Source of the DNA: Zoogloea oleivorans
GTDB taxonomy: Bacteria; Pseudomonadota; Gammaproteobacteria; Burkholderiales; Rhodocyclaceae
Direction of reading: 5' to 3'
DNA length: 64,000 bases
Assembly: GCF_008107625.1 (NCBI RefSeq)
Contig: NZ_SDKK01000017.1
Span: forward strand, 1 to 64,000
Each line of letters starts with the position of its first letter. Within the stretch, counting starts at the first letter, position 1. The notes beneath the pieces are model-generated. The model ran no database searches and was not told the origin of the DNA. It saw nothing but the letters and a program-made list of their open reading frames with translations. This document shows, piece after piece, positions 1-38,553 of this stretch. A program made the translations under genes and the position numbers.

Positions 1-16
1 AGTCCGACCCACGGGG
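1..16. repeat. Edge fragment of the paired-palindrome repeat
   Basis: The first bases read AGTCCGACCCACGGGG, which is the right end of the same palindromic module that fills 961-1648. The rest lies outside the window. The run GACCCACGGGGG also closes the main array at about 1664-1675, so the patatin gene appears to be flanked on both sides by this repeat family. The call rests on 12-16 matching bases only. Confidence 0.6.
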
Positions 17-32
17 GGCTGGGCTGTGGGGG

Positions 33-938
33 TCAGCGTTGGCTGAGGGCGCGGCGGATGGTGGGGAGGGCGAGTTCGACGGCGGCTTCGCCTTCGGCGA
101 TGGCTTCGGGGCCGCGGTGGTAATCCATCAGGCCGAGTTGGGCCAGGCGCGGGGAGATCAGTACGTCGGCAGGTTCGCCGGCCAGGCGACTGCGGGCGAT
201 GCGCACCGACATGATGGAGATGCTGCTCTGCATGACGGTGAGCATGGAGGGCAGGCTTTCGGGGGCGTCGTTGTCGTCGGCCAGCGGGGTGCCGTTGCGG
301 CCAAAGCGGGCCAGCAGCTTGCGCGACCAGCCGGGTGCCTCGGCGGGCACCGACGGCCCTGCCCTGCCACGCCAGGCGGCGCCGACCAGGTCGGAATTGA
401 GATCGACGGCGATGACCACGTCTGCCCCCATGGCCCGGGCCAGGGACACCGGCACGGGATTGACGAGCCCACCATCGACGAGCAGGCGCCCGTCTTGCCA
501 GGAGGGCGTCATCAGACCGGGCAGCGCAATGGACGCACGCACGGCCGCCGACACGCTGCCCTCACGCAACCACACTTCGTGCCCGTTTTGCAGGTCGGTG
601 GCGACGCAGCCGAACAGATGCGGCAGCGCGGTGAAGTCGCGATCGACAAAGTTGCGCTCGAAAAAGGCGATCAGCTTGTCGCCCTTGATGAGCCCGCCGC
701 GCAGGCCCATATCCATCAGGCCAACCACGTCCTGCCAGCCGAGGGCTTCAACCCACAGCCCCAGCTTTTCGAGGTCGCCAGATGCGGCAACGGCGCCCAC
801 GAAGGCGCCGATGGAACAGCCGCTGATGATCTGCGGCTCGATGCCCTCGCGGGCCAGTGCCCGCAGCACGCCAATATGCGCCCATCCACGGGCGGAGCCG
901 CTGCCGAGGGCGATGCCGATACGAGGGGGGCGTTTCAT
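33..938 (-). CDS. Patatin-like phospholipase family protein (RssA/YlbK type)
   Basis: 301 aa serine acyl hydrolase of the patatin family, expected to cleave acyl esters of phospholipids or lipids. The N-terminal glycine-rich oxyanion loop GSGSARG is at residues 12-18, the nucleophile elbow GCSIG puts the catalytic serine at residue 42, and the catalytic aspartate of the dyad is in the DGG motif near residue 155. No signal peptide is seen, so it is probably cytosolic. The ATG is at 936-938 without an obvious Shine-Dalgarno. The leader is peculiar: the 86-bp palindrome array begins only about 22 bp upstream. Substrate unknown; family assignment is secure, a more specific role is not. Confidence 0.9.
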   Translation of the reverse strand: MKRPPRIGIALGSGSARGWAHIGVLRALAREGIEPQIISGCSIGAFVGAVAASGDLEKLGLWVEALGWQDVVGLMDMGLRGGLIKGDKLIAFFERNFVDRDFTALPHLFGCVATDLQNGHEVWLREGSVSAAVRASIALPGLMTPSWQDGRLLVDGGLVNPVPVSLARAMGADVVIAVDLNSDLVGAAWRGRAGPSVPAEAPGWSRKLLARFGRNGTPLADDNDAPESLPSMLTVMQSSISIMSVRIARSRLAGEPADVLISPRLAQLGLMDYHRGPEAIAEGEAAVELALPTIRRALSQR

Positions 939-960
939 GGAAGCAGGATGATTTTCCCGG

Positions 961-1648
961 TGGGTCGGACTTTAGTCCGATTCGGAGGTTGAGCCTGGGT
1001 TGTCGGACTGAAGTCCGACCCACAAGAACATCGGACGCCGACGCTGTGGGTCGGACTTTAGTCCGACTCGGAGGTTGAGCCCGTGTTGTCGGACTGAAGT
1101 CCGACCCACAAAGACATCGGACGCCGACGCTGTGGGTCGGACTTTAGTCCGACTCGGAGGTTGAGCCTGGGTTGTCGGACTGAAGTCCGACCCACAAGAA
1201 CATCGGACGCCGACGCTGTGGGTCGGACTTTAGTCCGACTCGGAGGCTAAGCCTGGGTTGTCGGACTGAAGTCCGACCCACAAAAACATCGCACGCCGAC
1301 GCTGTGGGTCGGACTTTAGTCCGACTCGGAGGTTGAGCCTGGGTTGTCGGACTGAAGTCCGACCCACAAAGACATCGCACGCTGACGCTGTGGGTCGGAC
1401 TTTAGTCCGACTCGGAGGTTGAGCCTGGGTTGTCGGACTGAAGTCCGACCCACAAGAACATCGCACGCTGACGCTGTGGGTCGGACTTTAGTCCGACTCG
1501 GAGGCTGAGCCCGTGTTGTCGGACTGAAGTCCGACCCACAAGAACATCGCACGCCGACGCTGTGGGTCGGACTTTAGTCCGACTCGGAGGTTGAGCCTGG
1601 GTTGTCGGACTGAAGTCCGACCCACAAGAACATCGCACGCCGACCCAC
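961..1648. repeat. Tandem array of eight 86-bp units, each with two inverted palindromes
   Basis: Units start at 961, 1047, 1133, 1219, 1305, 1391, 1477 and 1563, an exact 86-bp period. Each unit holds TCGGACTTTAGTCCGA and, about 27 bp on, TCGGACTGAAGTCCGA, each a 7-bp inverted repeat, and the two modules with their flanking GTGGG/CCCAC face each other. All sixteen palindromes are invariant, whereas the spacers vary (gagcctggg or gagcccgtg; acatcgga or acatcgca; one ggctaag variant in unit 4). A degenerate tail follows to about 1680. The array fills the gap between the rimO stop and the patatin start, both on the minus strand, so read-through RNA would carry sixteen short hairpins. It resembles REP/BIME-type repeats rather than a CRISPR. 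Confidence 0.93.
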
Positions 1649-1680
1649 AAAGACATCGGACGCTGACCCACGGGGGAGGT
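1649..1680. repeat. Degenerate end of the 86-bp array
   Basis: After the eighth unit the sequence repeats the inter-module segment (acaaagacatcggacgctga) and ends with GACCCACGGGGG just before the rimO stop codon. It looks like a truncated ninth unit or the array boundary; nothing coding is seen. Confidence 0.6.
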
Positions 1681-3009
1681 TTAGATGGGTTCGGCGTAGA
1701 GGTCGTGCACGTCGCAGTCGGTGATGCGCACGCGGGCGAACTGGCCGGGCTCGAGGTTTTCGCCGTTCGGGATGACGACCAGGCCGTCGATCTCGGGGGC
1801 GTCGCCGGGCGAACGGGCCAAGGCGCCCTCCTCGTCGATTTCATCGACCAGCACGGTCATTTCGCGGCCGATGAAGCGTTCGAGGCGTTCGGTGGAGATG
1901 TCTTCCTGGAACTCCATGAGCTGGATGCGGCGCTCTTCGCGGACTTCTTCGGGCACCGGATTGGCGAGTTCGTTGGCGGCGGCGCCTTCAACCGGCGAGT
2001 AGGCGAAGGCGCCCACGCGGTCGAGCTTGGCTTCGTCGAGGAACTGCAGGAGTTCTTCGAATTCGGCGTCGGTTTCGCCGGGGAAGCCGGTGATGAAGGT
2101 CGAGCGGATGGTGAGATCGGGGCAGATCTCGCGCCAGCGGCGGATGCGCTCGAGGTTGTTTTCGGCGCTGGCCGGACGCTTCATGGCCTTGAGGATGCGC
2201 GGGTTGGCGTGCTGGAAGGGCACGTCGAGGTAGGGCAGGATCTTGCCTTCGGCCATCAGCGGGATGATGTCATCGACGCTGGGATAGGGATAAACGTAGT
2301 GCAGGCGCACCCACACGCCCAGGTCGCCGAGGGCGTTGCACAGGTCGTAGAGCTTGGTGCGCAGCGGGCGACCGCCCCAGAAGCCGGTGCGGTACTTGGT
2401 GTCGACGCCGTAGGCGGAGGTGTCCTGCGAGACGACGAGGAGTTCCTTGACGCCGGCATTGACGAGGTTTTCGGCTTCGCGCATGACTTCGCCGATGGGC
2501 CGGCTGACCAGGTCGCCACGCATCGACGGGATGATGCAGAAGGTGCAGCGGTGATTGCAGCCTTCGGAAATCTTGAGGTAGGCGTAGTGATCCGGCGTGA
2601 GCTTGATGCCTTGCGGCGGGGTCAGGTCGATGAACGGATCGTGGCGCTTTGGCAGGTGCTTGTGCACCTCGCTCATGACTTGCTCGGTGGCATGCGGCCC
2701 GGTGACGGCGAGCACTTGCGGGTGCGCGGCCATGACCACGTCGGCCTTGGCGCCCAGACAGCCGGTCACGATGACCTTGCCGTTTTCACTGAGGGCTTCG
2801 CCGATGGCGTCGAGGGATTCTTCAACCGCAGCATCGATGAAGCCACAGGTGTTGATCACGACGAGGTCGGCACCTTCGTAGGAAGGAGAAATCTCGTAAC
2901 CCTCGCCGCGCAAACGGGTGAGGATGTGCTCGGAGTCCACCAATGCCTTGGGGCATCCGAGACTGACGAAGCCGACTTTGGGGGCGGCCGCTTGCTTGGC
3001 TTGGGTCAT
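1681..3009 (-). CDS. rimO: Ribosomal protein uS12 methylthiotransferase RimO
   Basis: 442 aa radical-SAM enzyme that methylthiolates the conserved aspartate of ribosomal protein S12. The N-terminal UPF0004 domain carries the auxiliary-cluster cysteines at about 19, 55 and 84; the radical-SAM CxxxCxxC is CNHRCTFC at residues 151-158; a C-terminal TRAM domain follows. The text [13 protein letters not shown] is typical of RimO rather than MiaB. The chosen ATG at 3007-3009 gives the usual N-terminus; an upstream in-frame extension is not supported. It lies 58 bp downstream of phaR on the same strand, so it may be partly co-transcribed with the PHA regulator. Confidence 0.96.
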
Positions 3010-5432: not shown

Positions 5433-7172
5433 TCAGGCCTTTTCCTTTACGTAACGTCCGGGAGCGGGCTCGATGACCTTGTACTTGGCATTGCCGGGCT
5501 TGCTGCGCGCCGCAACCATGTCGCCACTGCGCGGCTTGAGCCATTCGATCCAGTGCAGCCACCAGCTGCCCTTTTGCTCCGCGGCGGTCTCGAGCCATTC
5601 TTCGGGTACCGAGGCGGTGGAGTCGCTGACCCAGTAGCTGCGCTTGTTCTTCGAGGCCGGGTTGATGGCGCCGGCGATGTGGCCGCTGGCGCCGAGCACG
5701 AAGGTGGTTTCGCCGCCGAGGATCTGGCGCACCAGGTAGGCGCTGGTCCAGGGCACGATGTGGTCTTCGCGGGTGGCCAGCAGGTAGGCCGGCAGATCGA
5801 CCTTGCCGAGGTCAACCTTGGTGCCGAGCATTTCGAGCTTGCCGGGCACGCGCAGGTTGTTTTCGAGGTACATGTTGCGCAGGTACCAGGCCAGGAAGGG
5901 GCCAGCCAGATTGGTGCTGTCGGAGTTCCAGTAGAGCAGGTCGAAGGCTTCCGGCTGCTTGCCCTTGAGGTAGTTGCCGACCACGTATTGCCAGATCAGG
6001 TCGTTAGCCCGCAGGCTGGAGAAGACTTGCGCCAGTTCGCGCCCCTGCAGCAGACCGCCCTTGCCGATGGCGGCTTCGCGGGCCGCGACGGAGGCTTCGT
6101 CCACCAGGCAGCCGATTTCGCCGGCATCGGCAAAATCAAGCAGCGTGGTCATGAGGGTCAGGCTTTCGGCCGGATCTTCACCCTTGGCACGCAGCACGCC
6201 GAGGGCCGACGACAGGATGGTGCCGCCGACGCAGAAGCCGAGCACGTTGGGCTTGTCGACCTTGGTCACTTCACGCACGACCTGCAAGGCGGTGATCGGA
6301 CCCTTGTCGAGATAGTCGTCCCAGCCGAAGTGGGCTTCGCTTGCGGTGGCGTTCTTCCAGGACACCAGGAAGACGGTGAAACCCTGTTCGACGATGAAGC
6401 GCACCAGCGAGTTGGCCGGCTGCAGATCCATGATGTAGAACTTGTTGATGCAGGGCGGGACGATCAGCAGCGGCGTTTTGTGAACCTTGTCGGTCAGCGG
6501 CGCGTACTGGATGAGCTGGATCAGCTCGTTTTCGTAGATGACGGAACCCGGCGTGGTGGCCAGGTTGGTGCCGATCTCGAAGGCCGCATCGTCGGTCATC
6601 GAGATGCGCCCCTTCTCCATGTCGCCGATGAGGTTCTTGATGCCCTGGGTGATGCTTTCACCCTTGGTGGCGAGCGCCGTCTGGATGAACTCGGGGTTGG
6701 TCGCCGCAAAATTGGACGGCGCCATGGCGTCGATGTACTGACGGGTCATGAACTGCATGCGCGCCTTGGCCCGGCCGTCGGCCACCGGCAGCGCGTCGGA
6801 AACCTTGTTCAGGTAGTCCGCGTTGAGCAGGTAGGCCTGGCGGATGTAGTTGAAAACGGGGCTGGCCGACCATTCCGGCGCATTGAAGCGACGGTCGCCC
6901 GGCTGGGGCTTGATCAGCGGCTCGGCGGACTCGCCCGGCTTGAGCTGGGCCATGGAGGCCCACAAGCGGGCGTGCGCTTCGGCGAGTTCCTGCTGGAGTT
7001 TTGCAAGCTCCTGGGATTCCGGCATGGGAATTTGCGGAATCGGGGTCGGTGCTGCCTGCGGAAAGGCGACACCTTGCTTGCCGAGGAAATCAAAGAACCC
7101 TTCGGCCATCGACTGACCGAACTTGAACATGCCCTGTAGTGCCTCTGCTGACTGCTCCGGGGTAACAGACAT
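5433..7172 (-). CDS. phaC: Class I polyhydroxyalkanoate synthase PhaC
   Basis: 579 aa polymerase that joins (R)-3-hydroxyacyl-CoA into PHA at the granule surface. It has the N-terminal PhaC domain and an alpha/beta-hydrolase fold with the lipase-like box GFCVGG at 312-317, whose Cys314 is the acyl-carrying nucleophile; the single-subunit length fits class I. The ATG at 7170-7172 is preceded by AGGAGAGG; an in-frame 21-codon extension upstream is rejected. It heads the minus-strand phaC-phaB-phaB-phaR cluster. No phaA (beta-ketothiolase) is present in the window, so acetoacetyl-CoA must be supplied by a distant gene. Confidence 0.96.
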   Translation of the reverse strand: MSVTPEQSAEALQGMFKFGQSMAEGFFDFLGKQGVAFPQAAPTPIPQIPMPESQELAKLQQELAEAHARLWASMAQLKPGESAEPLIKPQPGDRRFNAPEWSASPVFNYIRQAYLLNADYLNKVSDALPVADGRAKARMQFMTRQYIDAMAPSNFAATNPEFIQTALATKGESITQGIKNLIGDMEKGRISMTDDAAFEIGTNLATTPGSVIYENELIQLIQYAPLTDKVHKTPLLIVPPCINKFYIMDLQPANSLVRFIVEQGFTVFLVSWKNATASEAHFGWDDYLDKGPITALQVVREVTKVDKPNVLGFCVGGTILSSALGVLRAKGEDPAESLTLMTTLLDFADAGEIGCLVDEASVAAREAAIGKGGLLQGRELAQVFSSLRANDLIWQYVVGNYLKGKQPEAFDLLYWNSDSTNLAGPFLAWYLRNMYLENNLRVPGKLEMLGTKVDLGKVDLPAYLLATREDHIVPWTSAYLVRQILGGETTFVLGASGHIAGAINPASKNKRSYWVSDSTASVPEEWLETAAEQKGSWWLHWIEWLKPRSGDMVAARSKPGNAKYKVIEPAPGRYVKEKA

Positions 7173-38485: not shown

Positions 38486-38553
38486 TGTGGGTCGGACTTC
38501 AGTCCGACAAACCCCCGCTGAAGCAGCGCTGTCGGGCTAAAGTCCGACCTACA
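38486..38553. repeat. Solitary paired-palindrome repeat
   Basis: GTGGGTCGGACTTCAGTCCG at 38487 and its inverted partner GTCGGGCTAAAGTCCGACC at 38531-38549 face each other across a 22-bp spacer. It is the same module as the array at 961-1648 but with a different spacer and one variant arm (C for A in one stem). It sits 3 bp after the transporter stop and 20 bp before the next gene, so it may act as a transcript-end hairpin or processing site. Confidence 0.88.

What the first reader, a model, noticed from the sequence alone, without database searches (positions are those of the whole stretch)
961..1648. Exact 86-bp tandem array with sixteen invariant palindromes
Eight units repeat with no period slippage. 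The two palindromic modules of each unit are identical in all copies while the spacers carry scattered substitutions, which is what selection, gene conversion or a structural role on the arms would leave. Any transcript would fold as a row of hairpins. Eight copies in an array is unusual for REP/BIME elements, which mostly occur as one or a few.
Basis: seen in the sequence. Interest (0 to 1): 0.8.

Follow-up and report, generated by a model that had tools for sequence, protein, structure and literature searches.

The report
Tandem array of small mobile palindromes
A Zoogloea-like bacterium carries hundreds of short DNA palindromes of a kind spread by one small transposase, and eight pairs of them sit head to tail between two genes; this is a long but otherwise ordinary example of a known kind of bacterial repeat.

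Summary
The array is real: 8.0 units of 86 bp at 960-1644, 0% indels, 16 of 16 core palindromes exact. Each unit is one inverted REP pair (a REPIN, or BIME) of 64 bp with GTGG tags outward, plus a 22-bp linker. The genome holds 381 exact cores and other tandem arrays of 4-14 REPs. It has one REP-associated tyrosine transposase (RAYT; NF047646, 146.9 bits, cut-off 80) flanked on both sides by the same REPs. Among 19 genus genomes, the three where this RAYT type was found have 22-381 copies; the other 16 have 0-3. Between rimO and the patatin gene one relative has a single REPIN, others a different REP class or neither. Pooled over arrays, arms diverge less than spacers (1.5% against 8-10%), the published REPIN pattern. 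So the REP/BIME reading holds; "unusual" does not: arrays are common in this genome, and papers whose passages I read describe clusters of up to six REPINs. Verdict: a new member of a known kind. RAYT activity and any function are inferred; the exact copy number needs long reads.

The parts
960..1647 (.). Tandem array of eight 86-bp units, each a REPIN (64 bp) plus 22-bp linker
960..1023 (+). First REPIN: left REP 960-981 (GTGG tag outward), 20-nt loop, right REP 1002-1023 (CCAC outward); later REPINs start at 1046, 1132, 1218, 1304, 1390, 1476, 1562
   Evidence: fold
1024..1045 (.). First of the 22-bp linkers between REPINs; related linkers occur in arrays on contig C88
1617..1671 (.). Degenerate edge: 2.4 copies of a 23-bp linker repeat without the REPIN
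33..938 (-). Patatin-like protein gene; 21 bp lie between the array and its start codon
   Evidence: PF01734 103.1 bits, cut-off 27.7; NCBIfam RssA model 260.3 bits, just under its cut-off of 272
1681..3009 (-). rimO, co-directional with the patatin gene; its stop codon is about 55 bp from the last REP (start codon at 3009 is my choice; the listed ORF runs to 3144)
   Evidence: TIGR01125 566.6 bits, cut-off 356.95; ORF
38487..38552 (+). A lone REPIN of the same family elsewhere in the window; one core is exact, the other has one mismatch
1..12 (.). Half of another REP exactly at the contig edge (the window starts at base 1 of the contig)

Best explanation
It is a tandem cluster of eight REPINs, non-autonomous elements made of two inverted REPs. 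They are most likely spread in trans by the genome's single RAYT, a HUH tyrosine transposase. Inferred history: a REPIN, or a short REPIN-linker-REPIN block related to arrays on contig C88, landed between rimO and the patatin gene. It then grew locally by slippage or unequal exchange with breakpoints inside units, giving near-identical units with reshuffled spacer variants. Arms stay invariant because REPs are what RAYT binds and cuts, so only intact ones keep being copied, or because they are selected; spacers drift. Shown here: the anatomy, the genome-wide family, the RAYT with flanking REPs, the between-species presence and absence, and the mixed (chimeric) pattern of unit variants. Inferred: RAYT as mover, how the array grew, and the likely side effect that a rimO transcript reading through would carry strong hairpins just before the patatin start, loosening its coupling to rimO.
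For: 381 exact core sites in 5.68 Mb, control 0. One Y1_Tnp gene found; as a 162-aa ORF it scores 146.9 bits against the RAYT model NF047646, cut-off 80, and matches the solved TnpAREP chain 4er8, E 2.1e-9. REPs of this class lie on both sides of the RAYT in G000 (upstream ones with 1-4 mismatches), G003 and G013. 22-381 copies in the 3 genus genomes with this RAYT type, 0-3 in the 16 where it was not found. Head-to-head pairs 42-47 bp apart are the commonest arrangement: 22 of 43 clusters in three whole large contigs plus the window. 100 of 116 REPs lie outside predicted genes against 16% of random positions, and 14 of the other 16 lie within about 110 bp of an ORF end. At the rimO-patatin site, of 18 genomes with both genes adjacent, G000 has eight REPINs, G003 one, G013 a remnant, 4 a different REP class, and 11 neither class (one of these, G004, may hold a further class). 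Within-array divergence pooled over 15 arrays: REP 1.5%, loop 9.9%, linker 8.0%. 13 of 21 informative column pairs violate the four-gamete test.
Against: No transposition, cleavage or expression was observed. REP class B is abundant in G015 (122 sites) and present in G011 (65), G004 (43) and G009 (34), where no class-B RAYT was found, so RAYT and copy number do not track perfectly. Absence of a RAYT in drafts is weak evidence: several genus genomes are 72-89% complete, and the four G006 matches were not typed. Tree support for the RAYT types is modest (82/88 for type A, 52/62 for B). Arm conservation is not uniform: in the C74 array REPs (6.1%) differ as much as loops (6.3%) and more than linkers (0%), in C14:9081 REPs and linkers both show 0%, and three short four-REP clusters have REP divergence of 4.5-24%. 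The relaxed REP search (up to 5 of 22 mismatches) gives 8 hits in reversed sequence, so most of the 10 sites with 4-5 mismatches may be chance. Side-specific loops in several arrays are not explained by plain drift or free conversion.
Confidence: 0.88

Rival explanations
1. The array is kept because it does a job: a BIME-2-like gyrase site or topological insulator, or an intercistronic structure that sets rimO and patatin mRNA levels, and selection on that job holds the arms constant.
For: Arms conserved beyond spacers; strong fold of the whole intergenic transcript, -447.3 kcal/mol, z -22.4 over 20 shuffles; the array lies between co-directional genes; gyrase cleavage sites are over-represented in E. 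coli BIME-2 (PMC6379681, passages).
Against: 11 of 18 genomes have neither REP class A nor B at this site, and 8 of those have only 11-35 bp there, so the genes do not need it. The other arrays of six or more REPs have varied neighbours (most not named by a family search). No promoter or intrinsic-terminator match in 900-1800.
Confidence: 0.12
2. The arms are invariant because of gene conversion among the hundreds of REP copies rather than selection or RAYT-dependent copying.
For: Mixed unit variants suggest exchange within the array (four-gamete violations); identical arms are the natural substrate. In the C45 array right-side loops are mixed (2 TTC, 2 TTT), and in C88:3667 one of five left loops is TTC.
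Against: Left TTT and right TTC loops are never swapped in 8 of 8 units here, nor is the side difference broken in the C88:6759, C88:10278 and C38 arrays; conversion with the mostly TTC copies (146 of the 206 REPs sampled) should erase it.
Confidence: 0.1
3. The copy number, or the array itself, is an assembly artefact of a 107-contig draft.
For: The window contig begins inside a REP. 2 of 64 contig ends examined (one of them this one) lie within 120 bp of a REP motif against 0.6% of random windows, a weak excess. The sequencing method is unknown; the array may be longer than the reads.
Against: Units differ by distinguishing substitutions; unique genes lie on both sides; similar arrays occur at many loci, and the G003 RAYT lies within REP arrays with a 109-110-bp period.
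Confidence: 0.08

Closest known systems
REPINs and ordered REPIN clusters of Pseudomonas fluorescens SBW25 (PMC3116915, passages seen)
   Same: Two inverted REPs with 16-bp invariant ends, variable spacer, hairpin; tandem clusters of near-identical REPINs with their flanks; clusters beside the RAYTs; REP classes tied to RAYTs.
   Different: Largest SBW25 cluster is four REPINs plus a REP; here eight. Sequence class and host differ.
BIME-2 of Escherichia coli (PMC2817692, PMC6379681, PMC8049555, passages seen)
   Same: Alternating REPs in tandem, intergenic, with two kinds of REP alternating.
GTAG-tagged REPs of Thauera sp. MZ1T, same order by recall (PMC3733652, passages seen)
   Same: Tagged REPs, largely clustered; large clusters in such families are mostly reiterated in tandem with flanking DNA.
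   Different: Thauera GTAG-1 stems are 5 bp and its RAYT is reported as Pseudomonas-like (PMC2817692, passages).

Membership tests
REP (repetitive extragenic palindrome) | High-copy short palindrome with a GT(A/G)G head | tested here: met
   381 exact cores; GTGG head in G000, GTAG head in the G003 loci seen
REP (repetitive extragenic palindrome) | Mostly extragenic | tested here: met
   100 of 116 outside predicted genes, random positions 16%; gene prediction was a crude ORF and GC3 script
REPIN / BIME | Inverted REP doublets as commonest unit, near-fixed spacing, hairpin | tested here: met
   22 of 43 clusters are head-to-head doublets, 42-47 bp apart, 13 of them at 43; fold of two units
REPIN / BIME | Doublets better conserved than singlets | tested here: inconclusive
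   Mean mismatches 0.75 in head-to-head doublets, 1.67 in singlets, but only 9 singlets
RAYT-associated REP system | RAYT gene flanked by two inverted cognate REPs | tested here: met
RAYT-associated REP system | REP abundance follows cognate RAYT | tested here: met
   Class A: 22 or more copies in 3 of 3 genomes with the type, 0 of 16 without a type-A RAYT found. Class B fits less well: abundant in G015, G011, G004 and G009 without one found
RAYT-associated REP system | RAYT cleaves and moves the REP or REPIN | not testable with these tools
   needs biochemistry or evolution experiments
BIME-2 (E. coli) | Gyrase binding and cleavage | not testable with these tools
   none here

The most novel reading that the evidence does not exclude
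Arrays are built by REP-dependent, RAYT-driven local amplification rather than passive slippage, and they spread between loci as REPIN-linker-REPIN blocks. That would explain why units here keep perfect, side-specific arms while spacers drift, and why arrays on different contigs share linkers (C14 with C74, C45 with C88, and more weakly the window array with C88).
Probability: 0.2. Interest if true: 0.5.

Novelty: new member of a known kind. Interest (0 to 1): 0.25.

Why it matters
It places an abundant, array-forming REPIN/RAYT system in a Zoogloea-like genome (Betaproteobacteria), in a genus with at least three RAYT types and their matching REP classes. Its long arrays with side-specific arms make a usable test case for the question of how REPIN clusters grow and why their arms do not decay.

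Tried and rejected
Rfam on 1-3000 at E up to 1: 11 matches, all microRNA models far below their gathering scores (best 29.8 bits against 74), taken as chance hits to hairpins. Plasmid records: no match; phage and E. coli records were not searched. CRISPR was rejected by form: the spacers are repeated too, and inverted REP pairs are dispersed over the genome (my judgement; no cas search made). Intrinsic terminators: none found in 900-1800. Independent insertion of eight REPINs was rejected: linkers and loops are near-identical within the array. Simple stepwise duplication without exchange was disfavoured by four-gamete violations (13 of 21; recurrent mutation not excluded) and by no rise of difference with distance. 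Flanks of the 23 lone REPINs examined share little with linkers: 4 of 920 pairs reach the 99.9% null level; flank against flank 10 of 1012, some excess, unexplained. In G003 and G013 the triple-REP pattern with gaps up to 38 found nothing; the G003 arrays have 50-bp gaps, which that pattern cannot see. Papers: Zoogloea with RAYT gave 2 papers and Zoogloea with 'repetitive extragenic palindrom' gave 3; by title and start of abstract none is about REPs of Zoogloea, and none was opened. PMC12306157 (REP survey) has no 'Zoogloea' in its main text. Subscription journals are mostly not held.

Full report
Observation. The array is as described. Tandem Repeats Finder places 8.0 copies of 86 bp at 960-1644 with 0% indels. 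The core TCGGACTNNAGTCCGA is exact at 16 of 16 places. Eleven of 86 unit columns vary, none in the 32 core columns (P = 0.004), and 1 of 11 lies in the full 22-bp REPs (P = 0.003). The core limits are post hoc, so the P values are indicative only.

Anatomy. Each unit reads GTGG-palindrome (960-981), a 20-nt loop, an inverted palindrome ending CCAC (1002-1023), then a 22-bp linker. The two REPs pair with each other into one long hairpin on either strand in both units folded. The rimO-side edge keeps 2.4 copies of a 23-bp linker repeat without the REPIN. The array lies between rimO (TIGR01125, 566.6 bits) and a patatin-like gene (PF01734), both on the minus strand, 21 bp from the patatin start.

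Host. Eighteen of the 30 relatives drawn are from the same genus.

Genome-wide family. The genome holds 381 exact cores with 0 in the reversed-pattern control (the pattern is its own complement, so forward and reverse counts are the same sites). In the 1,336,633 bases examined, allowing up to 5 of 22 mismatches, there are 206 REPs, 183 of them with 0 or 1 mismatch; reversed sequence gives 8. Some of those stretches were fetched because they hold arrays. In the three large contigs fetched whole (C1, C8, C14) plus the window there are 43 clusters: 26 doublets (22 head-to-head), 9 singlets and 8 larger. Triple-REP runs number 77, of which 14 come from this array (50 of the 77 listed). The longest arrays seen have 16 (here), 14, 12, 10, 9, 9, 8 and 8 REPs. 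Not every contig was read, so 'longest' means longest seen.

Transposase. One Y1_Tnp gene was found in the genome. As a 162-aa ORF it is a RAYT by NF047646 (146.9 bits, cut-off 80), matches the solved TnpAREP chain 4er8 (E 2.1e-9), and has class-A REPs on both sides, the upstream ones with 1-4 mismatches. In G003 the homologous RAYT lies within REP arrays with a 109-110-bp period, and in G013 between two REP pairs. Two other RAYT types in the genus are flanked by other REPs: GTAGGGGCGACTTCAGTCGCCC (class B) and GTAGGTCGGGTTAGCGCAGCGTAACCCGAC or a near variant (class C). The three REP labels need the fewest possible changes on the RAYT tree (2; as low in 0 of 200 shuffles), although support for types A (82/88) and B (52/62) is modest.

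Distribution. Of 19 genus genomes searched both ways, class-A cores number 381 (G000), 177 (G003), 22 (G013), 3 (G018), 2 (G015) and 0 in 14. Type-A RAYTs were found in exactly the first three; the four G006 matches were not typed, and several genomes are 72-89% complete. For class B, G013 (100) and G018 (170) have a type-B RAYT, but G015 (122), G011 (65), G004 (43) and G009 (34) show none. Either RAYTs were lost or missed in drafts, or REPs outlive them.

The site. In 18 genomes with rimO and the patatin gene adjacent (gaps measured from tblastn ends): G000 has eight REPINs, G003 one with GTAG tags, G013 a degenerate remnant; G018, G015, G011 and G009 have class-B palindromes (one mismatch in G009); 11 have neither class A nor B, of which 8 have only 11-35 bp between the genes and one (G004) has a palindrome that may be yet another class. 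So the gap seems to have been visited by at least two REP classes, and the genes do without it elsewhere. Three of the 21 genomes searched gave only weaker patatin matches.

How the arms stay constant. Pooled over 15 arrays of four or more REPs, REPs differ by 1.5% within an array against 9.9% for loops and 8.0% for linkers. By array, REP divergence is below loop divergence in 11 of 11 with loops of comparable length (only just in C74) and below linker divergence in 8 of 10 (equal at 0 in C14:9081, higher in C74). Long arrays weigh most in the pool. Detection needs at most 5 mismatches in a REP, which favours conserved REPs; most arrays show regular spacing without skipped slots, so I judge the bias small. 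Here and in the C88:6759, C88:10278 and C38 arrays the left and right REP loops differ and never swap, while C45 is mixed and C88:3667 has one exception. This argues against free conversion between arms. Unit variants are mixed: 13 of 21 informative column pairs fail the four-gamete test, and neighbouring units are no more alike than distant ones. Some arrays on different contigs share linkers: C14:255838 with C74 (score 18 on 20-bp linkers), C45 with C88 (up to 21); the window with C88 scores 12 at best (shuffle maximum 11) and 10 with two other C88 clusters, which is only threshold level. The best nine matches of a window unit outside the array are C88 units, 85-91% over 65-79 of 86 bp. Blocks larger than one REPIN therefore seem to have been copied between loci.

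Mechanism. Best supported: RAYT-mobilised REPINs, then local amplification with exchange, with arms held by their role in RAYT recognition. Steps shown: family, RAYT with flanking REPs, distribution, site comparison, mixed unit variants. Steps inferred: RAYT activity, amplification route, effect on rimO-patatin transcription.

Comparison. Bertels and Rainey describe REPINs with invariant 16-bp ends and tandem clusters that include flanking sequence, the largest with four REPINs plus one REP (PMC3116915, passages). A six-REPIN cluster in E. coli lost five copies in a mutation-accumulation line (PMC8049555, passages). Nunvar and colleagues define RAYTs by flanking inverted REPs, with GT(A/G)G heads in Stenotrophomonas (PMC2817692, passages). 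Large REP clusters in GTAG families mostly reiterate singletons or dimers in tandem with flanking DNA, and the Thauera family is largely clustered (PMC3733652, passages). The sequence features of this kind are met here, so this is a new member of a known kind, with a longer array than the REPIN cluster sizes in the passages I saw. I found no paper on Zoogloea REPs in the held library.

Noticed in passing
L234 (contig C88, 1-20000): Class-A REP clusters (arrays of 9, 9 and 14 REPs plus three triples at 5996, 8252 and 9314) lie between galU and a glucose-6-phosphate isomerase / nucleotide-sugar dehydrogenase pair, sugar-precursor genes; PMC3733652 (passages) reports REP arrays beside exopolysaccharide genes in Thauera MZ1T.
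   Followed up: partly
rimO-patatin gap in L128, L132, L136, L131: A different REP class (GGGCGACTNNAGTCGCCC, GTAG-tagged; one mismatch in L131) occupies the same gap in four relatives; its exact copy number ranges from 0 to 170 in 21 genus genomes.
   Followed up: partly
L115, L122, L108, L109: A third, very divergent RAYT type, preceded in all four by a long palindrome GTAGGTCGGGTTAGCGCAGCGTAACCCGAC or a near variant; an inverted copy follows in three, and was not seen in the 300 bp after the longer frame of L109.
   Followed up: partly
L134, rimO-patatin gap: GTGGGGTCGAGTTAATTCGACC looks like yet another REP class in G004; copy number not counted.
   Followed up: no
L126:5476-5964: The RAYT reading frame runs into the downstream REPIN, so its last residues are encoded by a REP.
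   Followed up: no
window 1-12: The contig starts inside a REP; over 64 contig ends examined only 2 (this one included) lie near a REP, so breaks at these repeats are a weak trend at most.
   Followed up: partly
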